The notes beneath the pieces are model-generated. The model made no database searches, was not told where the DNA came from, and saw nothing but the letters and a program-made list of their open reading frames with translations. Source: Actinosynnema sp. ALI-1.44 (GTDB lineage Bacteria; Actinomycetota; Actinomycetes; Mycobacteriales; Pseudonocardiaceae). From it: a stretch of 64,000 bases of DNA. The position numbers were made by a program, and so were the translations under genes. Location of the stretch: the NCBI RefSeq assembly GCF_001984155.1, contig NZ_MTQO01000050.1, positions 372,001-436,000 of the forward strand, written 5' to 3'. Positions 35,693-46,295 of the stretch are shown here, in pieces. The first letter of the stretch is position 1. Each line of letters begins with the position of its first letter.

Positions 35693-36627
35693 ACCCGGCG
35701 GCGGCTGCCTGGTTCGCGGCGCGGACCTGGCAAGATCCTAAGTGGACTGTCCGGGAGCTCGCCGAGGCGAAGGCCGGGCGCACGGTCAGCGTGGTGCTGC
35801 CCGCGTTGAACGAGGAAGAGACCGTCGGCGACGTCGTGCGCACGGTCCGGCCCCTGCTCGGCACGCTGGTGGACGAGATCGTGGTGATGGACTCCGGGTC
35901 GACCGACCGGACCGCCGAGGTGGCCGGGGCGGCCGGGGCGCGGGTGGTCCGCAGGCAGGACGTCGTGCCCGAGCTGGAGCCGTTGCCCGGCAAGGGCGAA
36001 GTGCTCTGGCGGTCGCTGGCGGCGACCACCGGCGACCTGGTCGTCTTCCTGGACGCCGACCTGGTCGACCCCGATCCGGCGTTCGTGCCCGCGTTGCTCG
36101 GGCCGCTGCTGACCGAGGACGTCCACCTGGTCAAGGGGTTCTACCGGCGGCCGTTGCGGCTGGAGACCGAGGACTACGGAACAGGCGGCGGGCGCGTCAC
36201 CGAGCTGCTGGCCCGGCCGTTGCTCAACGCCGTCCGGCCCGAACTGTCCGGCCTGGTCCAGCCGCTCGGTGGCGAGTACGCGGCGACCAGGCAGTTCCTG
36301 GAGTCCGTGCCCTTCGCCGCCGGGTACGCGGTGGAACTCGCGCTGCTGCTCGACGCCCACTCGCTGTACGGGTTGGACGCGATCGCGCAGGTCAACCTCG
36401 GTGTCCGCAAGCACCGCAACCGGAATCTGCTTCAGCTGGGCGTGATGGCGAGCCAGATCCTCGGCGCGGTGCTGCGCCGGTGCGGCATCGAGGGGCCGAC
36501 GGAGCTGACCCAGTTCGTCCAGGTCGGTGGCGAGTGGATCCCCGACACCGCCGAGTTCGCGGTCGCGGACCGGCCGGCTATGAAGTCTGTTCTCCGCCGT
36601 TCTGGTAAGCCATTTCCGCTTCCATGA
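35689..36627 (+). CDS. gpgS: Glucosyl-3-phosphoglycerate synthase GpgS
   Basis: A 312-residue GT81/GT2-fold glycosyltransferase. It makes glucosyl-3-phosphoglycerate from an NDP-glucose and 3-phosphoglycerate, the first step towards glucosylglycerate and methylglucose polysaccharides. The motifs LPALNEEETVGDV, the metal site FLDADLVDPDP and GGEYAATRQFLE are visible. It is coupled to folP2. Its 3' end overlaps the convergent GNAT gene by 50 bp, the edge of the accessory island. Confidence 0.93.
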   Translation: MNPAAAAWFAARTWQDPKWTVRELAEAKAGRTVSVVLPALNEEETVGDVVRTVRPLLGTLVDEIVVMDSGSTDRTAEVAGAAGARVVRRQDVVPELEPLPGKGEVLWRSLAATTGDLVVFLDADLVDPDPAFVPALLGPLLTEDVHLVKGFYRRPLRLETEDYGTGGGRVTELLARPLLNAVRPELSGLVQPLGGEYAATRQFLESVPFAAGYAVELALLLDAHSLYGLDAIAQVNLGVRKHRNRNLLQLGVMASQILGAVLRRCGIEGPTELTQFVQVGGEWIPDTAEFAVADRPAMKSVLRRSGKPFPLP

Positions 36628-37063
36628 TGGACTCGTCCCTCGGCAATGGGCCGGTCCGGCCGGTCCGCCGGAAGCCCAGTTTTTCGTAGAAGCGTTCCGC
36701 CGAGGGGTTCTGCTCGCCCACCCAGAGCGTGACCCGCCGCTTGTCCTTCGCCCAGTCCAGCACCGCCTGCACGGTCCGCGCCGCGAGGCCGGTTCCCCTG
36801 GCGTCCGGGTGGGCCCAGATCCGGATCAGCTCGGCCTCGTCGCCGTCGACCGGGAACGCCGACGCGATGGCCTGGACCTTGCCGTTGCGGCTGCCGAGGA
36901 ACACCACCGACGTGGTCAGCTTCTCGCGCCACTCGGCTTCGGTGTTGCGCTCCTCGTCCCGGAGGGTCGAGCCGAAGGCGTCGGGGGAGTCCGCCAACGC
37001 CGTCAGGCGGATCTCCCGGAACGCCGCCCAGTCCGCCGGCTGGGCCTGCACCACCTCGTTCAT
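36578..37063 (-). CDS. GNAT-family acetyltransferase (island gene 9)
   Basis: A 161-residue single-domain GNAT. The acetyl-CoA-binding stretch is IWAHPDARGTGLAARTV and the C-terminal strand is PSAERFYEKLGFRRTGR. The start ATG overlaps the stop of the GT-like gene (ATGA), with GGAGGTCC upstream. It is the last gene of the nine-gene overlapping operon, so it may acetylate the pathway's product or serve in self-protection. It runs 50 bp into the convergent gpgS. Confidence 0.85.
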   Translation of the reverse strand: MNEVVQAQPADWAAFREIRLTALADSPDAFGSTLRDEERNTEAEWREKLTTSVVFLGSRNGKVQAIASAFPVDGDEAELIRIWAHPDARGTGLAARTVQAVLDWAKDKRRVTLWVGEQNPSAERFYEKLGFRRTGRTGPLPRDESIMEAEMAYQNGGEQTS

Positions 37064-38091
37064 CGTGCGAGGACCTCCGCGTAGTCCGTGACACGCTCGC
37101 GCGCGTCGAGCAGGGCCGTGTGTGCCTTCGCCAGCATGGCCACATCGAAACCGTGAGCACGCCAGTTGTCGAACGAGATACCGAAACCAAGGCGCTCCCA
37201 CAACTCCGCGTTGCGTTTCTCGTGCGCACCGAACGGCTCCAACAGCACGGATGGTGTCGCTGACCAGAGCGAATCCAGCATGGTGCCGCCGCCCGGCTTG
37301 CTCACCGCCGCGAGTGCGGCTCGAGTGAGGTCGTACGAGCCGTGATGCCCCCGGCCGCGGGTGAACGCCACTTCGCCGTCCTTGATCTCGCCGAACGGCG
37401 GGTAGCCGTCGTCCAGCCAGGGGTGCCAGTCCGGGTCGATCATGAAGTGCCGGACCGCGTCGTCTTCCCGCACGTCGCTCGGCTCGTAGGCGATGACGTC
37501 CAGCACGAACCCGTGTGCTCGCAGTTCGGCCGCGCGTTCCCGGTACGTGCCCATTCCCCAGCCACCGCCGTGGACCAGCAGCCGCCGGTCGCGCTCGTGC
37601 CATGTGATGGGTGGGTCGTTGCTGACCGGGATGCTGTACGGCAGCGTTCGGTTCTCCGCGTCGGCCAGCCAGATCGCGCGTGCGTCCGGGGTGGCACCGA
37701 CCTTCCGGAACGACGGCGAGACGACCGAGTCCACGTGGCAGATGTCCACGTCGGCGTGCTCGTAGCGGTCCAGGATGGGCAGCCAGAAGCCGGAGAACAC
37801 CACGAACTTCCGTACGTCACGGGATCGCCATGACGCCAGCGCCGCGTCCTGGGCCTCGGCGGGGATCGCGACGGAGGCGTCGCGTGCCACCCGCTGGCCC
37901 GCCAAAGCCACGCGGAAGTCCCGGTGGAACGCCCATTTCATCTTCGTCGTCGTCGCGAGGGTGTCCTGCGGCAGCAAGCGTTCCAGCACCGAGACGTGGA
38001 CGTCCACGCCGCGCTCACGCAACCGGTCGGCCAGCAGCAGGCCCGGCACGTGCACGCCGAGCGCAACCCCGGAGGTCAGGATCTCGATCAC
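37060..38091 (-). CDS. GT-B-fold glycosyltransferase-like protein (island gene 8)
   Basis: A 343-residue protein with a GT-B (UGT/MurG-like) appearance. The N-terminus is EILTSGVALGVHVPGLLLAD (a glycine-rich Rossmann loop). The C-terminal half carries SKPGGGTMLDSLWSATPSVL followed by EPFGAHEKRNAELWERLGFG, the usual donor-sugar-binding region. It starts at GTG, overlapping the stop of the kinase gene. It may glycosylate the pathway product. The donor and acceptor are not evident, and a non-sugar role is possible. Confidence 0.75.
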   Translation of the reverse strand: MIEILTSGVALGVHVPGLLLADRLRERGVDVHVSVLERLLPQDTLATTTKMKWAFHRDFRVALAGQRVARDASVAIPAEAQDAALASWRSRDVRKFVVFSGFWLPILDRYEHADVDICHVDSVVSPSFRKVGATPDARAIWLADAENRTLPYSIPVSNDPPITWHERDRRLLVHGGGWGMGTYRERAAELRAHGFVLDVIAYEPSDVREDDAVRHFMIDPDWHPWLDDGYPPFGEIKDGEVAFTRGRGHHGSYDLTRAALAAVSKPGGGTMLDSLWSATPSVLLEPFGAHEKRNAELWERLGFGISFDNWRAHGFDVAMLAKAHTALLDARERVTDYAEVLAR

Positions 38092-38993
38092 AGCTTCGCC
38101 GCCGACGCCACCAGGTTCCGGGTGATCAACCTGCGTGTGCCCGCGTCCTCGCTCTGCCGGGGGACGGTCTCGACCAGCATGATCAGGTAGAGGTAGACCT
38201 GGTAGCAGGCAAGGCGGTGCGCCACCGGCTCGGTGAACTCCAGCGGCCCGTATCCGTCGAGGAACGCGGCGTCCGCGCGGATGTCCTTGAACAGGGCGAG
38301 CGAGACCAGTTCGGCGACCGGGTCGCCCCAGAACGCGCGCTCGCCGTCGATCAGGCCGGTGACCCGGTCACCGTCGAGCAGGATGTTGCCGTCCCACAGG
38401 TCGAAGTGGACGAGGACCGGGTGCCCGACGTCGTCGAACGCGGGCGAATCCAGCGCTGCCAGTACCTTCTCGCCCGCGACCGGCAGGTCCACGGCGTACC
38501 GCTCGGCGTCGGCGAGCACGGACGTCACCATCTGGCGGAAGGCCGACCGCCACGAGCCGTGCAGGCCCAGTTGGGGATAGCCGAAGCCGGTGCCGGTGAT
38601 CTTGTGCAGCCTCGCCACGATCTCGCCGAGTTCGCCGCGGAGCTTGGCGCGCTTGTCCTGCTGCGGCTTGTTCGGGTACCACGGCAGGCCGGGGATCTCG
38701 GTCATCAGCAGGAAGTCCCGCTCAGCGTGGATCACCTGCGGCACGGGCAGTCCGGCTGCTTCCCGGTAGAGCAGCGCCTCGGTGGTCATCAGGCCTTGTT
38801 CGTAGGTCAGCGACGGCGAGGCGGGGTCGGGCGCGACCTTGAGGATGTACCCGGTGTCCGCTGTACGCAGGCGATAGGCCGTGTTGTACGTGCCTTCGGT
38901 GAGCTCCTGCCTGGCCAGCACCGCGGCCGGGTCGATGCCGCACGTCGCCAGCACGTCGTCCAGTTCGCCGGAAGACAGCGTCCGTCTGGTCAC
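38088..38993 (-). CDS. APH-family small-molecule kinase (island gene 7)
   Basis: A 301-residue aminoglycoside-phosphotransferase-fold kinase. ATP lysine K52 lies in YILKVAPD, the catalytic loop HFDLWDGN at about residues 196-203, and the metal aspartate in LIDGERAFWGD near 216. I chose GTG 38993, overlapping the upstream stop (GTGA). It could phosphorylate a pathway intermediate or inactivate the product for self-resistance. Relatives include homoserine and choline kinases, so an antibiotic target is not proven. Confidence 0.88.
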   Translation of the reverse strand: MTRRTLSSGELDDVLATCGIDPAAVLARQELTEGTYNTAYRLRTADTGYILKVAPDPASPSLTYEQGLMTTEALLYREAAGLPVPQVIHAERDFLLMTEIPGLPWYPNKPQQDKRAKLRGELGEIVARLHKITGTGFGYPQLGLHGSWRSAFRQMVTSVLADAERYAVDLPVAGEKVLAALDSPAFDDVGHPVLVHFDLWDGNILLDGDRVTGLIDGERAFWGDPVAELVSLALFKDIRADAAFLDGYGPLEFTEPVAHRLACYQVYLYLIMLVETVPRQSEDAGTRRLITRNLVASAAKL

Positions 38994-40153
38994 GAAACCT
39001 CCGAAACTCGATGAACCCGCCACGGCAGGGTGTCGCAGACTGCGAGCGTCCGCTCCTCTGACCAGCCGATCCCGTCGCCGCTGAGGTGGGCGAGGAGTTC
39101 GCCGTCCGCGGTCCGCCTGGCGCGGATGCCCAACGAGCCGGCGCGGCCGATGTCACGGGGCCCGGCGGCGTCCACAACGGACCCGGTCGCGTCACCGAAC
39201 GACAGGTCCTGCGGCCGTGAGTCCGGCAGGTACTCGATGAACGGGCACGCGGCGTCTGTGGGCGGGTCCATCACGTGCTGCTGTGCGCCGAGTACGACGT
39301 CACGGACCGCGGCGACGTAGTCCCCGGTCAATGCGGCGGGCGGTCGTGGCAACGGCATGAAGGCCGGTACCGTGCACGGCCCCGGCATGGCACGCCATTC
39401 CATCCGATTGCGGCGGCTGAGCAACGTGTTGACCAGCACGCTGTCCCCTGGACCGAGGTACGGCAGCATCGCGCACGCGATCCCGGCCACCAGTGACACG
39501 AACACCGTGGACCGGTTCTTGCGGGAGAACCGCTCCAGTTCGGCCACTTCGTCCGCGGTGAGCACGCGTCGCCGCAGGGCGAAGCCCGCTGCCGGGGTCG
39601 GCGATGGCTGGGCGAGTTCGGTGAACGCGACCTTGCGCCACCATGCGTCGGCCGCGGTGCGACCGTCGTCCAGCAGCCGCGCTTGTGCTTCGGTGTACTG
39701 CCAGAACTGAGTCATCGGAGCGGGCAGTGGCCCGCGGTACAAGGCGGCGAGTTCGGCCAGCAGGACCCACAGCGTCACCGGGTCGGCCATCATGTGGTGG
39801 ATGTGCAGGCACAGCAGGTGCCGGTCGGTCTCCACCTCCGCCAGGCGCAGCCGGACCGGGCTCAGCGCCGTGAACTCGACTGGTGCGTGCAGCAGTTCGG
39901 CGGAGGCGTCGACGAGTTCCAGCTCAGCGGGGACTTCCGGCCTGATGACCTGGGCGTCGTCCTCGATCCGCGTACGCAACAAGGCGTTGCGGTCGACCAG
40001 TTGCTGAAACGCCTGCTCAAGTCGTCGTACGTGTAGCGGGCCGCGCACTTCGACGACCGCGTTCATGGTGAACCACGGCCCGGTGGACCAGCCGGGCTCG
40101 TCGGCGTCGAAGCCGAGCGCGAACCGTTGCCAGACAGCCAGCGGCTTCCTCAT
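38990..40153 (-). CDS. Stand-alone condensation-domain-like protein (island gene 6)
   Basis: A 387-residue single C-domain (BAHD/NRPS condensation superfamily). The active site appears as HIHHMMADP with H119-H120 and D124, against the usual HHxxxDG, so the catalytic histidine is kept but the glycine is a proline. The N-terminal FQQLVDRNALLRTRI block is typical of C domains. It would join an acyl or aminoacyl group from the carrier protein to an amine or hydroxyl acceptor. No adenylation or thioesterase domain is attached. ATG 40153 overlaps the Gfo/Idh stop. Confidence 0.85.
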   Translation of the reverse strand: MRKPLAVWQRFALGFDADEPGWSTGPWFTMNAVVEVRGPLHVRRLEQAFQQLVDRNALLRTRIEDDAQVIRPEVPAELELVDASAELLHAPVEFTALSPVRLRLAEVETDRHLLCLHIHHMMADPVTLWVLLAELAALYRGPLPAPMTQFWQYTEAQARLLDDGRTAADAWWRKVAFTELAQPSPTPAAGFALRRRVLTADEVAELERFSRKNRSTVFVSLVAGIACAMLPYLGPGDSVLVNTLLSRRNRMEWRAMPGPCTVPAFMPLPRPPAALTGDYVAAVRDVVLGAQQHVMDPPTDAACPFIEYLPDSRPQDLSFGDATGSVVDAAGPRDIGRAGSLGIRARRTADGELLAHLSGDGIGWSEERTLAVCDTLPWRVHRVSEVS

Positions 40154-41094
40154 CGGACCAGAGCTCCCCTGGCCGTCGCATGGATCCCGGCCAGCAACGC
40201 GATCCGCTCGCCCGGCGAGTCGGGGCTGGTGAACAACTGATCCAGTTGTGCTTCGTAGTAGTCGATCGGCGGGAACGACCGGATCTCGGTTCGCGCCCCT
40301 TTGATCGACAGGTTCAACGGCAGCGCGGCCGTCGTGGGCCGGAACAGGTTGCGCAGCCGTACGGATGCCGTCTCGAAGAAGAACTCGATCTCGGCGGTGT
40401 GCTTCGGCCCGACCGAGCAGTCCAATGTGGCCTCGCGGCCGTCGTCCCACCGCAGGGCGGCGTGGAATGACGTGTCCGTGCCGTTCGGACCGTCGAACGC
40501 CGATTCGCCGCTGCCCGTGGCACCTCGCAGGCCGACTGTGGACTGCACGGCCTGCAACCAGTAGCTCGCGCAGTCGAAGAAGATCCCGCCACCGAGCTCA
40601 GGCCTGGTGCGGTACGTCCCGTCGGCGGGTGTGAGGAACTGGATCCTCGTGTGAACCCGGCGCAGACCGCCGAACTCGCCGGTGTCGATCATCTGCCGGA
40701 CAGCCGCCTGCCACGGGTGACCGGCTGTCGGAATCGCCTCGGCCACCTCGACGCCGTTCGCGGCTTCCTTGATCGCCGCGTATTCGGACATGGTCAGGCA
40801 CAACGGTTTCTCGACGATCACATGCTTGCCTTGGGTCGCCGCGCGGACCGCCCACTCGTGGTGCGCGGAGTTGTGCAGCGATATGTACACCGCGTTGATC
40901 CCGGGATCCCGGACCAGTGAATCGTAGTTGTCGTGGACGCGTTCGATGCCGTTCCTGGCGGCGAATTCCCTGGCACGGGCGGGATCGCTCGCGGCAACGG
41001 CGTGGACGGTGACGTCCGCGCGGTTGCGGGCGGGCGCGATGATCGCGCGTTCGGCGATCCTGGTGGCGCCGATCAGGCCGAGGTCAAGCCGCAT
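40150..41094 (-). CDS. Gfo/Idh/MocA-family NAD(P)-dependent oxidoreductase (island gene 5)
   Basis: A 314-residue enzyme. The Rossmann loop is GLIGATRIAERAII, the active-site lysine is in VIVEKPLCLT, and the C-terminal half carries GGGIFFDCASYWLQA, where the motif's usual histidine is replaced (Tyr/Trp). Family members oxidise sugars, cyclitols or related alcohols. It overlaps the condensation gene by 4 nt and the ATP-grasp gene by 11 nt. The true substrate may be a sugar, a cyclitol or a carrier-bound amino acid. Confidence 0.88.
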   Translation of the reverse strand: MRLDLGLIGATRIAERAIIAPARNRADVTVHAVAASDPARAREFAARNGIERVHDNYDSLVRDPGINAVYISLHNSAHHEWAVRAATQGKHVIVEKPLCLTMSEYAAIKEAANGVEVAEAIPTAGHPWQAAVRQMIDTGEFGGLRRVHTRIQFLTPADGTYRTRPELGGGIFFDCASYWLQAVQSTVGLRGATGSGESAFDGPNGTDTSFHAALRWDDGREATLDCSVGPKHTAEIEFFFETASVRLRNLFRPTTAALPLNLSIKGARTEIRSFPPIDYYEAQLDQLFTSPDSPGERIALLAGIHATARGALVR

Positions 41095-42298
41095 GGACGA
41101 CTCCTCTGATCGTCATGCCCGCCGCCGCGACGGCGTCGAGCACGCGCTGTCTCAACGCATCGGGCTGCTGGGTGAACAGGGCGAAGTAGAACCGGCCGCC
41201 CGGCTCGGTCAACCTGCTGCCGTTGAGGACAAGCACGCCTTCACGTTCGCCGCCGGTGTAGCGCAGCTCGGCCAGGGCCTCGCAGACGGCCGAAATCCCG
41301 CCGCCGGGCGGGATCGTGAGCTCCAGCTGGCAGAGATGAGCCGCGAGGCCCTGCTTGGCGGCGCGTTCGTGCAACACCAGTGACAGCAGACCCAACGACT
41401 GCCTTGCGTTGATCTCCAGCACCGGCACCAGCGTGCCGTCCCACATCAGCATCGAGTCGACGCCGAACGGGCCGTGGTAACCCGCGGCCGCGAGCCTCCC
41501 GGCGACGGTGTCGATGACCCCGTAGTAGCTCCTTTCCCACAGGTAGTCGATGAACTCCGGTGATGGTGGCGACGATCCCATGTGCCGCAGACCCCTGTTG
41601 GTCATCACCTGGATACCGAGGTGCCGCCAGGTTCCGTCGGGGTCGACGACCGCATGTGCCGAGAAGTCCCGCTGCACGTCGTACTTCTGCTGGACGAGCA
41701 GTTCGATCCGCTTGTCCTGCTTGACCAGCGTCCGCTCGATCGCCCGAAGCACCCCCGGGGATTCCACGACAAGGGCCCCGCGCCCGGACACCCCGTACGG
41801 GTCCTTCACGACGGTCGACGGGAACTGGGTGACCGCCGCCGACAACTCGGCCACCGACCGGACGACGACTCCTGTCCCCGGCAGGTCCATCGACCGCGCC
41901 AAGGCGTTCGACCACGTCTTGGAGTTCACCTCGGCGACGACAACGTTGTCAGGCAATGACTCGGTCAGCTGTGTGGTCTCGGCGAGCACGGCGTACGGCT
42001 CAACGGCGAAACCAGCGACCAAGTCGGGGGACACGTGCCGTTCGATCGGTTCGCCCGGCTCGTCGGCGGTCACGTGTTCGAACGTGATCCCGGCTGACTC
42101 CAGACCTTCGCGGACGGACTCGGCCATGGGATACCGGGTGATCAGCCGGTCGGCGGGCGCGCAGAAGCCCGCGAGGAGTTCGTCCATCGCGGCGACCGCG
42201 TCGTCGGCACCGGCACGGGATATCGCCGGGAGCGTGGCCAGATCCGTCGGCCGCCACCACTTCTCCGCGTCGAACGTGCCCAGTCGCGCCGTTCTCAT
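41084..42298 (-). CDS. ATP-grasp ligase (island gene 4)
   Basis: A 404-residue ATP-grasp enzyme. The nucleotide-binding lysine is in VVKDPYGVSGRGALVV near residue 165, and the metal-binding residues are in GPFGVDSMLMWDG and VLEINARQSLGLL. About 150 residues precede the grasp domain. It lies next to a discrete carrier protein, 4-nt overlap, which recalls BtrJ, the butirosin enzyme that loads glutamate onto ACP BtrI. The likely reaction is ATP-driven attachment of an amino or carboxylic acid to the carrier thiol, or formation of an amide. The substrate is unknown. Confidence 0.88.
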   Translation of the reverse strand: MRTARLGTFDAEKWWRPTDLATLPAISRAGADDAVAAMDELLAGFCAPADRLITRYPMAESVREGLESAGITFEHVTADEPGEPIERHVSPDLVAGFAVEPYAVLAETTQLTESLPDNVVVAEVNSKTWSNALARSMDLPGTGVVVRSVAELSAAVTQFPSTVVKDPYGVSGRGALVVESPGVLRAIERTLVKQDKRIELLVQQKYDVQRDFSAHAVVDPDGTWRHLGIQVMTNRGLRHMGSSPPSPEFIDYLWERSYYGVIDTVAGRLAAAGYHGPFGVDSMLMWDGTLVPVLEINARQSLGLLSLVLHERAAKQGLAAHLCQLELTIPPGGGISAVCEALAELRYTGGEREGVLVLNGSRLTEPGGRFYFALFTQQPDALRQRVLDAVAAAGMTIRGVVHAA

Positions 42299-42564
42299 CC
42301 GGCTGCGAGCGCACTGGTCGACGTGACGTACTCGGTGAACTGGCTGACCGAACGCAGGTGGTCGAGCTCCAGCGTCTCGTAGTCGAGGTCGAGGTCGAAC
42401 GCGTCCTCGATGCCGAGCAGGAACGAGATCATCTGCAACGAGTCGAGCCCGTACTCGTCGACCAGGTCGGCGTCCGAGGCGATCTGGCCGGGCTCGATCC
42501 CGGAGCCGAGCACGCCTGCCAGCACGGTCTTGATGGTGAACTCGGTGTCGGACATGGGTTTCAT
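42295..42564 (-). CDS. Discrete acyl/peptidyl carrier protein (island gene 3)
   Basis: An 89-residue, strongly acidic four-helix carrier protein. The phosphopantetheine serine is S42 in DEYGLDSLQMISF. The ATG at 42564 overlaps the stop of the radical SAM gene (ATGA), and a second methionine at 42555 is an alternative. No phosphopantetheinyl transferase is in the island, so activation depends on a genome-wide enzyme. It is the likely scaffold for pathway intermediates. Confidence 0.92.
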   Translation of the reverse strand: MKPMSDTEFTIKTVLAGVLGSGIEPGQIASDADLVDEYGLDSLQMISFLLGIEDAFDLDLDYETLELDHLRSVSQFTEYVTSTSALAAG

Positions 42565-43736
42565 ACTCCGTTCAGGTAGAGCAGGATGCACTTCGAACAG
42601 ACCGGCATCATGCCGTTGGCCGAGAGGATCTCGCGGATCTCGCGGAACTCGGCGCTCTGCCACAGGTCCTCGACCGGGGTGTCGTAGAGGTTGCCCACCA
42701 CGAACTCGGGGAAGAACTTGCACGAGCTCACCGCACCGTCCGCGTGCACCTCCATCCGGTTGGACACCGCGAGGCACTTGTTGCGGTGCTGTGCCGGGCG
42801 GGACGTGCCGCGGATGAAGTCCTCGACCTCGTCGGCCGCCAGCTGCGGCTGGTAGCGCACCCGGACCCGCCACGGCCGGGAAGCCAGCCGTGCCATGGAT
42901 TCCCGCAGTACCGGGATCTGCTCCTCCGGCAGCCGGTAGGTGTACGAGTGCCAGGTGGGCTGTTTGGTCTTGGTGTCCGGGGCCAACCAGGCGAAGGACT
43001 CCTGGTACACCTTGTCCATCGCCTGCGCCACTTCCGGGCTGATGAACCACGGGAACTGGAAGTACACCGTGTTGACGCCGAGCTCCTCGGCCCACTCCAT
43101 GAACTCGTACATCGTGTACACGGTCACGTGCGACACCATGCAGGACAGCGAGATCTCGCCGTCGAACTCCCCGTTCCGCTTCAGGTCCAGCATCAGCTGG
43201 ATGTTCTCCATGGTGCGCTTGAAGGTGCCCTTGCCGCGCAGCGCCTCGTGGTCCTCACCGAGGCCGTCCAGGCTGATCAGCAGGTTCAGGTTCGCGCCGA
43301 TGCGCAGCAGGTCGTCCAGTTTCCGCTTGAACAGCAACCCGTTCGTGCACATGTTGACCGTGCGCGGGTAGCGCTCAAGAAGTTCGGCGACCTCGTTGAA
43401 CCTGGTGTGCATGAGCGGCTCGCCGCCCCACAGGAACGTTTTGGAACGGACCGGCGCGGTCGTGCGCAGCACCTGCTCGACGACGTCGACGTCCAGTTCC
43501 GTGCGTTGCCGCTGGACGCTGAAGTCGCGGAAGAAGCCCTGCTCGTTCCACTGGTAGCAGTGCGTGCAGCGCAGGTTGCACTTGTAGGTCAGCTGCAGGC
43601 TGACTTCCTGGGGCAGCGGGGCCGCGTACCCCGGGTCCGCCAGCAGGTTCCGGCGCGCCCGCGACCGGATCGCGACGGTGTGCTTGATGTCAGCGAACTC
43701 CTTGGCGGTCAACGTTCGTGTGGTGGTCGGGTGCAT
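42561..43736 (-). CDS. Radical SAM/SPASM enzyme (island gene 2)
   Basis: A 391-residue radical SAM protein. The [4Fe-4S] cysteines C53, C57, C60 are in YKCNLRCTHCY, followed by the SAM-binding WGGEPLMH. The C-terminal region carries extra cysteines (KCLAVSNR, VSSCKFFPEF, PVCSKC) with the SPASM/twitch look, suggesting auxiliary clusters. SPASM enzymes modify peptides or dehydrogenate (for example BtrN). Because a carrier protein overlaps it, the substrate may be carrier-bound; no RiPP precursor peptide is visible nearby. ATG 43736 lies 47 bp inside the MFS gene end. Confidence 0.92.
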   Translation of the reverse strand: MHPTTTRTLTAKEFADIKHTVAIRSRARRNLLADPGYAAPLPQEVSLQLTYKCNLRCTHCYQWNEQGFFRDFSVQRQRTELDVDVVEQVLRTTAPVRSKTFLWGGEPLMHTRFNEVAELLERYPRTVNMCTNGLLFKRKLDDLLRIGANLNLLISLDGLGEDHEALRGKGTFKRTMENIQLMLDLKRNGEFDGEISLSCMVSHVTVYTMYEFMEWAEELGVNTVYFQFPWFISPEVAQAMDKVYQESFAWLAPDTKTKQPTWHSYTYRLPEEQIPVLRESMARLASRPWRVRVRYQPQLAADEVEDFIRGTSRPAQHRNKCLAVSNRMEVHADGAVSSCKFFPEFVVGNLYDTPVEDLWQSAEFREIREILSANGMMPVCSKCILLYLNGV

Positions 43737-44994
43737 TCGATCCTCCTCCTTGCGTTTCGGCCAGTTCGGGCATGGAGCGCAACAGCAGAACGCTGGCGGC
43801 GACGCACGCGCCGCCGACGGCGAGCACGACGGCCAGCCCCGCTGGTGTACCCAGCAGCGACCCCAGCAGGCCTGCGGCGAAACCCGAGGCCAGCGAGCCG
43901 AGCGGGATCGTCGACGACGCCATCGTGCGGGCCGTGGCGTGCACAGTGGACTGTTCGCCCGGCGGGGTGAGCCGCTGGCGGATGCTGGTCGTCAGCACGT
44001 TCCACACCGGCAGCCAGAACGCCGAACAGACCCTGATCACCAGCAGGAGCACGACCGGCGCGACGACGAGCGTCAGCGGCACGGCCAGCCACACCAGGCC
44101 CTCGAACGCACTGGCCAGCAACGCGCTCCGGACGCCGATCCGCGCGGTGATCCGTTGCGTGACGAGTGCGCCGAGCAGCGCGCCGACCGCACCGGCGGCG
44201 AGCAGGAATCCGCCACCCAGGCTGGACAGGCCCAGCACCCGGTAGGCGAAGAGCAGCAGGACCGCGTCCACGATCCCGGTGCCGAAGCCGCGTACGGCCG
44301 TCGCGCAGACCAGTCGACGCAGCAACGGCCGGCTCCACACGAACGACACACCGGCTCGGATCCGCTTGGCCACCGGCGGTGGTGCCGTCAGGCGCGATGG
44401 CAGGTCCTCGACGACCTTGACCCGCGTCCGGCCGAGTGCCGATGCCAGGAACGGCGCCGCGTTCACGGCGATCGCGGTGATCCCGCCGACCAGGCTCGCC
44501 ACCGCGCCCGCGAGCGCCGGACCGACCAGTTTGGACAGACTGTCCGAGCCCTGCAGCCGCGAGTTCGCCGCGAGCAACTGGCCGGGGGACACCAGCGCGG
44601 GCAGGTGGGACTGCCCCGCGATGTCCACGAAAACCGTTGCGATCCCCGCGATGGCGACGACGACCACCATCTGCGTGACGCTCAGCCAACCGGCCGACGC
44701 GGCCACGGGGATGCTGAGGAACGCGACGAACCGGACCAGTTCACCGGCGATCATCACGCCGTGCCGCCGCCGTCCGGCCAGCAGCGCCCCGGCGATCATG
44801 CCGAAGGCCGGGTACGCCAGCCACCCGGCCGCGGACACGAGTCCGACCTGGGAACTCGACGCGTCCAGCACCAGGATCGCGGCGCTCGGCACGGCGAAGC
44901 CGGTCAGCCGGTCGCCGACGAAGCTCATCGTCTGACTGCCCCAGAACCACCGGAACCCGACGGGGAGGCCGGCCGCTGCTGACGTCGGTCGCAT
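43690..44994 (-). CDS. MFS transporter (island gene 1)
   Basis: A 434-residue major facilitator with about 12 membrane segments. It resembles the enterobactin-exporter-like/macrolide-efflux class (MFS_3), with the loop RITARIGVRS between TM segments. ATG 44994 follows AGGGGGACG. It heads the operon and overlaps the radical SAM gene by 47 bp. It probably exports the pathway product and gives self-protection. Confidence 0.9.
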   Translation of the reverse strand: MRPTSAAAGLPVGFRWFWGSQTMSFVGDRLTGFAVPSAAILVLDASSSQVGLVSAAGWLAYPAFGMIAGALLAGRRRHGVMIAGELVRFVAFLSIPVAASAGWLSVTQMVVVVAIAGIATVFVDIAGQSHLPALVSPGQLLAANSRLQGSDSLSKLVGPALAGAVASLVGGITAIAVNAAPFLASALGRTRVKVVEDLPSRLTAPPPVAKRIRAGVSFVWSRPLLRRLVCATAVRGFGTGIVDAVLLLFAYRVLGLSSLGGGFLLAAGAVGALLGALVTQRITARIGVRSALLASAFEGLVWLAVPLTLVVAPVVLLLVIRVCSAFWLPVWNVLTTSIRQRLTPPGEQSTVHATARTMASSTIPLGSLASGFAAGLLGSLLGTPAGLAVVLAVGGACVAASVLLLRSMPELAETQGGGSNAPDHHTNVDRQGVR

Positions 44995-45188
44995 CGTCCC
45001 CCTAGCCTCGGCGCGCGGCGTGACCTGGCGCTGTCGGTGATCATCCAGATGCGGTGCGTTCTGGTCGACACTCAACTGGCGGCAGTTCCTTCAAGCAAGC
45101 AATTAAGTGCGGTGTGATCCACGTTACTTGCGTTGTGCCTGGTCGCCGTGTGGATGGCAACAAATCGCCATGCCGCCCCATCTTGTCG

Positions 45189-45224
45189 ACGAGTAGTGCG
45201 GCTACCTGTTGCATGTCTACTCGT
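45189..45224. promoter_or_regulatory. Inverted repeat, candidate operator of island
   Basis: ACGAGTAG (45189-45196) and CTACTCGT (45217-45224) are perfect reverse complements separated by 20 bp. It lies about 75 bp before the PadR start. PadR or another regulator may bind here; the spacing is wide for a single dimer. Confidence 0.4.
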
Positions 45225-45259
45225 AAAACGGAATCCTTGTCAGATCCGGAGCAAAACGC

Positions 45260-45289
45260 TTGGGCAGTGTGACTTCCAACCCGTAGACT
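45260..45289 (+). promoter_or_regulatory. PadR gene promoter
   Basis: TTGGGC (45260-45265) and TAGACT (45284-45289) are separated by 18 bp and end 8 nt before the ATG. The layout suggests a near-leaderless transcript. Confidence 0.5.
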
Positions 45290-45297
45290 CGCTACGT

Positions 45298-45636
45298 ATG
45301 AAGCCGGACGTGCTGCGTGGACACCTCGACGCGCTGTTGCTCGCCACTCTCGACGGCAGGCGCCTGCACGGATACGCCATCATCGAAGCACTTCAGCTGC
45401 GTAGCGGCGGTGCGCTCGATCTCCCCACGGGCACGGTCTACCCGGCGTTGCGGCGCCTTGAGCGAGCCGGGTACGTCTCAAGCGAGTGGAGCACTGTGTC
45501 GGGCAGGCAACGCCGGACCTACCATCTGACGAAGGCCGGGCAACGCGCGTTGGTCCAGGAGCGGACCGCGTGGCGTGAATTCACGGCCGCCATCGAGGGT
45601 GTGCTCGGGGAGGGGCCATGGCCGGCGCAAGCCTGA
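45298..45636 (+). CDS. PadR-family transcriptional regulator
   Basis: A 112-residue winged-helix regulator. The DNA-binding domain starts HLDALLLATLDGRRLHGYAI and continues with PTGTVYPALRRLERAGYV. It has the short PadR-s2 C-terminal helix. It overlaps the next gene by 19 bp. PadR repressors often respond to drug-like ligands, so it could sense the island's product and control the MFS-led operon and its own pair. Confidence 0.9.
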   Translation: MKPDVLRGHLDALLLATLDGRRLHGYAIIEALQLRSGGALDLPTGTVYPALRRLERAGYVSSEWSTVSGRQRRTYHLTKAGQRALVQERTAWREFTAAIEGVLGEGPWPAQA

Positions 45637-46295
45637 TCGACGACTACGTCGCCGATCTGGACTCGCGGTTAGCGGGGCACCGAAGGACCAAGCTCGACCT
45701 GTTGACCGAGGTGCGCGACAGCCTCGAAGACGCCGCGGAGTGCTACCGGGCCGGGGGAGTGTCCGACGAGGACGCGCAACGCAAAGCGGTCGCCGACTTC
45801 GGCCGGGTCGGGGAGATAGTCCAGGACTACCAAAGCGAACTCGCCGTCGCGTACGGCTCGCGCACGCTGCGGGCCATCCTCTTCGTCCTGCCCGCACTGC
45901 ACCTGGCGTGGGAGGGCAGCCGGATGATCTTCCTCGGCCCATGGGAGGCGGTCCCCGGCGGCCCGATGCCCTCGTGGTTCCTGCCGTTCGCGCAGATCAA
46001 CGACAGCATGGCGTGGGCCGTGGTGATCGCGACCACGCTCGCCCTGCTGTTCGGGCGGTTCATGTCGCGCCGCGCGGCGGACAGCCGTCTGATCGCCCGA
46101 TGTGTGGCCACGGTCGCGTTGGTCACGGCAACCGTCGCATTGCTGGGGAACCTGTCGATCGGGGTCGTGACCGTGATCGTCAAGCCGATGCTGTTCGCCG
46201 TCGCGCCGATGTGCTGGGCGATGTCGCTGTTCGCGTTGCTCGTGTTGTCACGGCTGACCGTGATGGCACGAAAGGCGGTCCGGTTCGCCGCGTAG
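45618..46295 (+). CDS. HAAS/DUF1700-type membrane protein, PadR partner
   Basis: A 225-residue protein. The N-terminal helical HAAS-like segment (LIDDYVADLDSRLAGHRR and DEDAQRKAVADFGRVGEIV) is followed by about four membrane segments (near residues 82-98, 130-147, 160-180 and 185-208). PadR genes are commonly followed by such proteins. It probably acts at the membrane with the regulator. The exact mechanism is unknown. Confidence 0.8.
   Translation: MAGASLIDDYVADLDSRLAGHRRTKLDLLTEVRDSLEDAAECYRAGGVSDEDAQRKAVADFGRVGEIVQDYQSELAVAYGSRTLRAILFVLPALHLAWEGSRMIFLGPWEAVPGGPMPSWFLPFAQINDSMAWAVVIATTLALLFGRFMSRRAADSRLIARCVATVALVTATVALLGNLSIGVVTVIVKPMLFAVAPMCWAMSLFALLVLSRLTVMARKAVRFAA

What the first reader, a model, noticed from the sequence alone, without database searches (positions are those of the whole stretch)
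36578..46295. A nine-gene, almost fully overlapping biosynthetic operon inserted in a conserved backbone
The genes run MFS, radical SAM/SPASM, carrier protein, ATP-grasp, Gfo/Idh, stand-alone condensation domain, APH-like kinase, GT-B-like protein, GNAT, all on the minus strand and nearly all coupled by 4-nt overlaps. A divergent PadR-HAAS pair is at the head. There is no adenylation domain, polyketide synthase or RiPP precursor, so it does not fit the standard cluster classes. The flanking genes (gpgS and the DivIVA-like/tagA pair) are, as I recall, adjacent in mycobacteria, which argues for a discrete insertion. I could not match it to a known product.
Basis: partly seen in the sequence, partly recalled or inferred. 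Interest (0 to 1): 0.9.

Follow-up and report, generated by a model that had tools for sequence, protein, structure and literature searches.

The report
Unnamed radical-SAM carrier-protein glycoside cluster
A tightly packed set of eight or nine genes in a soil actinobacterium belongs to a widespread but unnamed family of biosynthetic clusters that probably loads an acid onto a small carrier protein, works on it with radical and sugar chemistry and passes it to an acceptor; the product is unknown.

Summary
In detail: nine minus-strand genes (MFS, twitch-type radical SAM, carrier protein, ATP-grasp, Gfo/Idh, condensation domain, APH kinase, GT-B-like, GNAT), mostly with 4-nt overlaps. The interpretation needs three corrections. 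(1) The set recurs: of 42 radical-SAM loci from 14 named actinobacterial genera, a Bacteroidota and an Acidobacteriota MAG, CP is near in 41, GT-B 41, ATP-grasp 40, condensation domain 40, APH 36, Gfo/Idh 30; in a family-wide genome sample 25 of 25 loci have CP and 24 of 25 ATP-grasp. (2) PadR-HAAS is backbone: 7 of 15 cluster-free loci have PadR at this site, 4 of them beside cydABDC or its remnants. In the window the PadR-cydA leader meets the cydC-MFS leader, so cydABDC was lost. (3) GNAT occurs only in this genus's clusters and, in one cluster-free relative, at the same place, so it may be backbone too. Insertion between cydC and gpgS is supported. No search I made tied the set to a product. 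Best reading: a butirosin-like, carrier-protein-based glycoconjugate pathway, in some genomes joined to terpene genes. Substrate, order of steps and product are inferred.

The parts
43690..44994 (-). MFS exporter
   Evidence: PF07690; same MFS family in 20 of 42 loci, window included, by clustering
42561..43736 (-). twitch-type radical SAM enzyme, most conserved gene of the set
   Evidence: PF04055 + PF13186; CX3CX2C and four auxiliary Cys; PDB profile hits SkfB, BlsE, BtrN
42295..42564 (-). stand-alone carrier protein, Ser39 phosphopantetheine site (start may be 42555)
   Evidence: PF00550; Ser39 in 41 of 41 aligned copies
41084..42298 (-). ATP-grasp enzyme, distantly PGM1-like
   Evidence: PGM1_C in 4 of 25 and PreAtp-grasp in 2 of 25 members; PDB 8ynd E 1.2e-13 over positions 285-389; K127, K165, E295, N297, R299 in 41 of 41, L050 included
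40150..41094 (-). Gfo/Idh oxidoreductase, Lys96/Tyr178
   Evidence: PF01408; Tyr178 aligned with a Tyr of sugar 3-ketoreductase 3rbv; in 30 of 42 loci
38990..40153 (-). stand-alone condensation domain, HHMMADP motif
   Evidence: PF00668; a condensation domain near the rSAM in 40 of 42 loci
38088..38993 (-). APH/fructosamine-kinase-like kinase
   Evidence: PF01636, PF03881; catalytic residues in 36 of 36
37060..38091 (-). GT-B-like glycosyltransferase with no Pfam family
   Evidence: Glyco_tran_28_C in 1 of 24 members; PDB 9wde E 2.8e-5 over 260-343; in 41 of 42 loci
36578..37063 (-). GNAT acetyltransferase, edge gene, possibly backbone
   Evidence: PF00583; tblastn finds it only in this genus's clusters; a GNAT homologue lies between cydC and gpgS in cluster-free G294 (L101)
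44995..45297 (.). scar of cydABDC loss: PadR-cydA leader (PadR side) next to cydC-MFS leader (MFS side)
   Evidence: alignment and BLAST against L051, L052, L070, G397, G398, G402
45298..45636 (+). PadR regulator, backbone, not of the cluster
   Evidence: PF03551; at the site in 7 of 15 cluster-free loci
45618..46295 (+). HAAS-type membrane protein, backbone partner of PadR
   Evidence: NF038403
35689..36627 (+). gpgS, backbone flank
   Evidence: NF010496, 433.7 bits
46312..47210 (+). DivIVA-domain gene and tagA, backbone flank
   Evidence: TIGR03544, TIGR00624

Best explanation
It is one copy of a widespread, unnamed cluster family that makes a small glycosylated amino-acyl (or other acyl) conjugate on a stand-alone carrier protein. 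Inferred steps: the ATP-grasp, standing in for an adenylation domain, activates a carboxylic acid, most likely an amino acid, and loads it on the CP (as BtrJ/BtrI do in butirosin, recalled). The twitch-type radical SAM enzyme abstracts hydrogen from the tethered acyl group or from the sugar partner and oxidises it, with the Cys-ligated auxiliary cluster as electron acceptor (as in BtrN, recalled). The GT-B enzyme adds a sugar; Gfo/Idh, which has the Lys/Tyr pair seen in an NDP-sugar 3-ketoreductase, reduces a sugar ketone. The free-standing C domain transfers the acyl group to an amine or hydroxyl acceptor, which varies between genomes (in three loci perhaps a terpenoid). The APH kinase phosphorylates an intermediate or gives self-protection; the MFS protein exports the product. 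Shown: gene content, conserved catalytic residues, joint occurrence, insertion site. Inferred: substrate, order of steps, product.
For: Co-occurrence within nine genes of the rSAM in 42 loci: CP 41, GT-B 41, ATP-grasp 40, C 40, APH 36, Gfo 30. In 25 loci from a 297-genome family sample, CP lies within 1.5 kb at 25 and ATP-grasp at 24. Distance matrices of seven genes correlate, r 0.74-0.95 in 21 comparisons, 0 of 999 permutations reaching r in each. Catalytic residues nearly invariant. rSAM profile hits include BlsE (2.7e-6) and the BtrN auxiliary region (2.8e-6). Gfo/Idh matches sugar 3-ketoreductase 3rbv over 5-257 (1.3e-16, fifth hit). rfbA/rfbB lie some 2-8 kb upstream of the rSAM in L059, L060, L063, L066, L074, L075 and L117, rfbA alone in L118; in the Kribbella loci (L059, L060, L063) other genes stand between. 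CP overlaps the ATP-grasp gene also in L050, without rSAM or GT-B. Terpene genes in L079, same families in L078 and most in L056. Plasmid copies.
Against: No substrate or product is known. The ATP-grasp's top solved hit is a peptide ligase and the next are acyl-CoA carboxylase subunits (1.4e-7, 3.4e-5), not CP loaders; 8 of 25 members hit a biotin carboxylase model. L050 also encodes an amino acid--[ACP] ligase-like protein (108.7 bits, below its cut-off of 357), so the ATP-grasp may do another job. CP was found in only 2 of 14 more distant ATP-grasp loci, L022-L035, which reach only 1.5 kb each side. Homology to BtrJ was not tested. The best solved rSAM hits are a peptide maturase (SkfB, 1.3e-12), 5wgg and sulfatase-maturating enzymes, ahead of BlsE and BtrN. 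The best Gfo/Idh hits are a plant AX110P-like protein (3.8e-28), 4had and 1,5-anhydro-D-fructose reductases, ahead of 3rbv. The C domain's best hits are ordinary NRPS domains. L056 has rSAM, CP and C without ATP-grasp or GT-B within the fetched stretch. No aminotransferase, as would follow a BtrN-type ketone, is in the window cluster. The GT-B assignment rests on weak sequence hits; its structure job did not finish.
Confidence: 0.4

Rival explanations
1. The ATP-grasp is a PGM1/BesA-type peptide ligase working on free substrates; the CP is charged by another enzyme, in trans or unrecognised, and the product is a small modified dipeptide glycoside.
For: PDB 8ynd 'ATP-grasp peptide ligase' E 1.2e-13 and L-propargylglycine--L-glutamate ligase E 8.1e-5; PGM1_C in 4 of 25; one of 25 members hits L-aspartate--L-methionine ligase; L050 has a separate amino acid--[ACP] ligase-like gene.
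Against: CP and ATP-grasp lie close together in 40 of 42 loci, the Bacteroidota one included. I recognised no other loading enzyme among the accessory families I looked at, but most neighbouring genes were not annotated.
Confidence: 0.3
2. A RiPP-like pathway: the radical SAM and PGM1-like enzymes act on a short ribosomal peptide that annotation misses.
For: PGM1 links an amino acid to a ribosomal peptide in pheganomycin, whose genes also include a radical SAM enzyme (passages of PMC8939145); many of the 25 NCBIfam rSAM families shown for the window protein are peptide maturases; top solved rSAM hit is SkfB.
Against: No room for a precursor between the overlapping genes; short frames in the 150-210 nt before MFS differ in length and residues between six genus members (read by eye, no rate test); CP and C domain are not part of RiPP logic.
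Confidence: 0.08
3. A cell-envelope or redox-cofactor pathway, comparable to mycofactocin, rather than a secreted metabolite.
For: Insertion beside the cytochrome bd operon in this genus; GT + rSAM + oxidoreductase is the mycofactocin kind of mix (recalled).
Against: Patchy: no match at E 1e-70 in 395 other genomes of a phylum sample, 23 of 297 in the family at 1e-80; plasmid-borne copies; MFS genes and, in three loci, terpene genes beside it; in the loci mapped cyd genes were recognised beside the cluster only in this genus.
Confidence: 0.12

Closest known systems
Butirosin AHBA side-chain pathway (BtrI, BtrJ, BtrN; recalled)
   Same: stand-alone carrier protein, ATP-grasp enzyme, twitch radical SAM enzyme, sugar context
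   Different: no 2-deoxystreptamine genes, BtrK, BtrO, BtrG or BtrH recognised in the window operon; a C domain instead of BtrH; homology to BtrJ not tested
Mitomycin early steps (MmcB carrier protein, MitE ligase, MitB glycosyltransferase; recalled)
   Same: substrate on a carrier protein meets a glycosyltransferase
   Different: MitE is an acyl-AMP ligase, and the radical SAM class differs (recalled)
Pheganomycin PGM1 ATP-grasp ligase
   Same: PGM1_C or PreAtp-grasp hits in some members
   Different: PGM1 joins an amino acid to a ribosomal peptide (passage); here CP, C domain and GT-B, no precursor found
Free-standing type II condensation enzyme (4znm; SgcC5 of C-1027 by recall)
   Same: stand-alone C domain expected to use acyl-CP
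   Different: HHxxxDP in the window protein; weak similarity (E 3.4e-4, behind ordinary NRPS C domains)
Sugar 3-ketoreductase 3rbv (KijD10 by recall)
   Same: Gfo/Idh fold, Lys and Tyr at matching positions
   Different: fifth hit, low similarity; sugar substrate of the window enzyme unknown

Membership tests
Butirosin-type AHBA pathway | ATP-grasp gene next to stand-alone carrier protein gene | tested here: met
   4-nt overlap in window; 40 of 42 loci hold both
Butirosin-type AHBA pathway | ATP-grasp homologous to BtrJ | not tested
   no BtrJ sequence in hand
Butirosin-type AHBA pathway | decarboxylase, monooxygenase, acyltransferase BtrH and cyclotransferase BtrG | tested here: not met
   no such family among the window operon genes
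BtrN-like radical SAM dehydrogenase | CX3CX2C plus a four-Cys twitch auxiliary cluster | tested here: met
   C53, C57, C60 and C321, C339, C380, C383; BtrN aligned over the auxiliary region; BtrN's own spacing is recalled
BtrN-like radical SAM dehydrogenase | alcohol oxidation activity | not testable with these tools
   needs assay
NRPS / NRPS-like cluster | adenylation domain | tested here: not met
   none in the operon
NRPS / NRPS-like cluster | C domain and carrier protein with catalytic residues | tested here: met
   HHMMADP and Ser39
RiPP cluster | precursor peptide | tested here: inconclusive
   no convincing conserved frame in the 150-210 nt before MFS in six genus members, judged by eye; genes overlap inside the operon; other places not searched
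PGM1-type ATP-grasp ligases | PreAtp-grasp and PGM1_C domains | tested here: inconclusive
   2 of 25 and 4 of 25 members; the window protein itself does not hit
Named NCBIfam radical SAM families | score over the curated cut-off | tested here: not met
   window protein: best E-value is N_Twi_rSAM, 101.7 bits against 170; the 25 families shown (of 76) are all under their cut-offs

The most novel reading that the evidence does not exclude
A separate assembly logic: an ATP-grasp charges a stand-alone carrier protein, the tethered amino acid is altered by a radical SAM enzyme and glycosylated while on the carrier, and a free C domain hands the finished glyco-aminoacyl unit to whatever acceptor the host supplies, including terpenoids. 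This would be a portable, cross-phylum decoration cassette outside the NRPS, PKS, RiPP and terpene classes.
Probability: 0.25. Interest if true: 0.85.

Novelty: new variant of a known kind. Interest (0 to 1): 0.62.

Why it matters
If the reading holds, a biosynthetic family spread over many actinobacterial genera has no named product that my searches found, and two of its genes are annotated 'hypothetical protein' on an annotated plasmid copy. It would give a testable case of ATP-grasp charging of a carrier protein and of radical SAM chemistry next to, perhaps on, carrier-bound substrates, and a marker set (rSAM + CP + ATP-grasp + GT-B + C) for mining. The history of the insertion site also shows how a neighbouring regulator can be mistaken for a cluster's own.

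Tried and rejected
Nucleocidin was considered because S. calvus carries a copy (L075); the literature search (listing and starts of abstracts only) gave no link, and no direct comparison with the nucleocidin genes was made. The viral-contig scan with the ATP-grasp found nothing. The phylum sample with the rSAM found only the window's own genome. The promoter scan, tandem-repeat and Rfam tools were not run; antiSMASH and MIBiG are not on hand. Most subscription journals are not held, so a product may be published outside this library. PadR as the cluster's own regulator was rejected. The regex count of the C-domain motif takes the first match and mis-scores some rows; only the motif of the window protein and the column conservation (26 sequences of the C family) are relied on.

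Limits of the counts. In one search, L085 and L086 were left out. Near-identical rows remain (L039/L076; L042/L045/L080; L048/L082), so the 42 are not 42 independent events. The 36 loci were found through rSAM peptide patterns, so conserved rSAMs are favoured; one search is a sample without those patterns. The profiles were built from the same families that they count; the condensation profile also holds one L085 protein put in by eye, the L086 hit lies in a 1362-aa NRPS-like protein, the L077 hit is weak (92 bits), and of the C-type families only one or a few members were checked with Pfam. Gene calls outside the window come from my own script.
Full report
What is there. The nine genes are as described, on the minus strand between 36578 and 44994. 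Six of eight junctions overlap by 4 nt (five if CP starts at 42555), the others by 11 and 47 nt. Pfam and NCBIfam name MFS, radical SAM, carrier protein, Gfo/Idh, condensation, APH and GNAT, but leave the ATP-grasp and the GT-B-like protein without a family over cut-off. On an annotated Streptomyces plasmid that carries the set, the same two genes are 'hypothetical protein'. GC content does not step at the cluster.

Where the window lies. The genome (11.7 Mb, 54 contigs) is unnamed. Genomes given as its genus have contigs of the same length as named Kibdelosporangium records (G397, G400, G403 against L053, L051, L070), so it is most likely a Kibdelosporangium.

How common. A GTDB scan with the rSAM gave 36 loci, from 14 named actinobacterial genera if the Rhodococcus-labelled record is counted with Kibdelosporangium, with which it groups, plus one Cyclobacteriaceae and one Acidobacteria MAG. 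With five further loci and the window this makes 42. Profile searches of their gene calls find, within nine genes of the rSAM, CP in 41, GT-B in 41, ATP-grasp in 40, a condensation domain in 40, APH in 36 and Gfo/Idh in 30. In 297 genomes of the family, 23 have the rSAM at E 1e-80, at 25 places; within 1.5 kb CP is found at 25 and ATP-grasp at 24. An earlier search of 397 genomes of the order with the ATP-grasp matched in 36 genomes; 13 matches have 39% identity or more, own included, and 12 of these 13 have the rSAM beside them. A phylum-wide sample of 396 had only the window's genome at E 1e-70. Two Streptomyces linear plasmids carry copies. The family is real, patchy and, at least in part, mobile.

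Joint inheritance. Pairwise distances of seven genes correlate between 0.74 and 0.95 in 21 comparisons, with 0 of 999 permutations reaching r in each. This is expected of genes moving together, but also of plain vertical descent, so it supports linkage and not function.

The site. Of 20 loci fetched around gpgS, 5 carry the cluster and 15 do not (absence of the rSAM from those 15 genomes). Of the 15, 7 have PadR between gpgS and the DivIVA-domain gene (G402, G215, G055, G294, G408, G409, G411), 4 of these with cyd genes (G215, G055, G294; decayed in G402); 6 have gpgS next to DivIVA and tagA without PadR; in 2 (G401, G407) the neighbours were not found. Six of eight genomes of the genus have the cluster. 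In K. aridum, the Rhodococcus-labelled strain and K. philippinense the cluster lies between cydC and gpgS and cydABDC is still there. In the window, G398 and G397 it is gone. The window's stretch between PadR and MFS matches, on the PadR side, the PadR-cydA leader (68-77 nt at 91-94%, of which the first 23 nt lie inside PadR) and, on the MFS side, the cydC-MFS leader (about 200 nt at 77%, of which about 60 nt lie inside MFS). So PadR-HAAS came with the backbone. Whether it now controls the operon is open. Cytochrome bd subunit I genes are found at two other places in this genome. A GNAT homologue (50% over 143 aa) sits between cydC and gpgS in cluster-free G294 (L101), and tblastn finds GNAT in no cluster outside this genus (within it, K. 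philippinense lacks it), so it may be backbone; that rests on one genome.

Enzymes. The rSAM has 147 of 391 positions conserved at 95% or more, more than its partners. Its C-terminal cysteines fit a twitch domain. Its best solved hit is the peptide maturase SkfB; BlsE and the auxiliary region of BtrN follow lower. The ATP-grasp keeps its catalytic residues in 41 of 41 copies; its top solved hit is a peptide ligase, over the C-terminal part only, followed by acyl-CoA carboxylase subunits, and a few members hit PGM1_C or PreAtp-grasp or a biotin carboxylase model. The Gfo/Idh has Tyr178 where 1,5-anhydro-D-fructose reductase 4koa has His; sugar 3-ketoreductase 3rbv, 1ydw and 4had have Tyr there. 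That Lys and Tyr are the catalytic pair is recalled. The APH kinase and the CP keep their catalytic residues.

Variants that inform function. L050 pairs CP, ATP-grasp and a C domain without rSAM or GT-B, and also has an amino acid--[ACP] ligase-like gene: this suggests a CP-centred trio but speaks against the ATP-grasp being the only loader. L079 is joined to polyprenyl synthetase, squalene-hopene-cyclase-like and terpene synthase genes and a luciferase-like monooxygenase; L078 has the same gene families and L056 most of them. That the terpene is a diterpene is a guess. L056 lacks ATP-grasp and GT-B in the fetched stretch, while a full set (L057) lies elsewhere in the same chromosome. Minimal sets (L068, L069, L076) have, of the shared genes, only rSAM, CP, ATP-grasp, APH, GT-B and C. 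dTDP-glucose genes stand near several copies.

Verdict. The product is unknown and the mechanism above is an inference from domain logic and analogy; I hold it at 0.4. The most useful single experiment is the acyl-CP assay.

Noticed in passing
window 44995-45297: Deletion scar: PadR-cydA leader and cydC-MFS leader are now neighbours, which may have put the operon close to a PadR-controlled promoter.
   Followed up: partly
L070:13952-14943: In K. philippinense the condensation gene of the cluster is interrupted by an IS630-family transposase.
   Followed up: partly
L056 and L057: One Kutzneria chromosome has a full cluster and a second rSAM-CP-C copy set among terpene genes without ATP-grasp or GT-B in the fetched stretch.
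   Followed up: partly
L050:4861-10636: A locus of G378 (same genus group as Micromonospora lupini, g39) with C domain, amino acid--[ACP] ligase-like protein, CP and related ATP-grasp but no rSAM or GT-B.
   Followed up: partly
L117 (NZ_CP134205.1): Plasmid copy followed by deoC, further Gfo/Idh, GT2, a second ACP and an aminotransferase: perhaps a larger sugar pathway. deoC, GT2, the second Gfo/Idh and the second ACP were not found at E 1e-15 in the other loci searched; an aminotransferase match of 32% lies at the edge of L044.
   Followed up: partly
L052: A record titled Rhodococcus rhodnii carries a Kibdelosporangium-type locus; a contig of the same length is in G399, given as the window's own genus. 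The title looks wrong.
   Followed up: partly
L093 (G402): Decayed cydA and cydC pieces at the same site in a cluster-free relative, which suggests that cyd loss here happened more than once.
   Followed up: no
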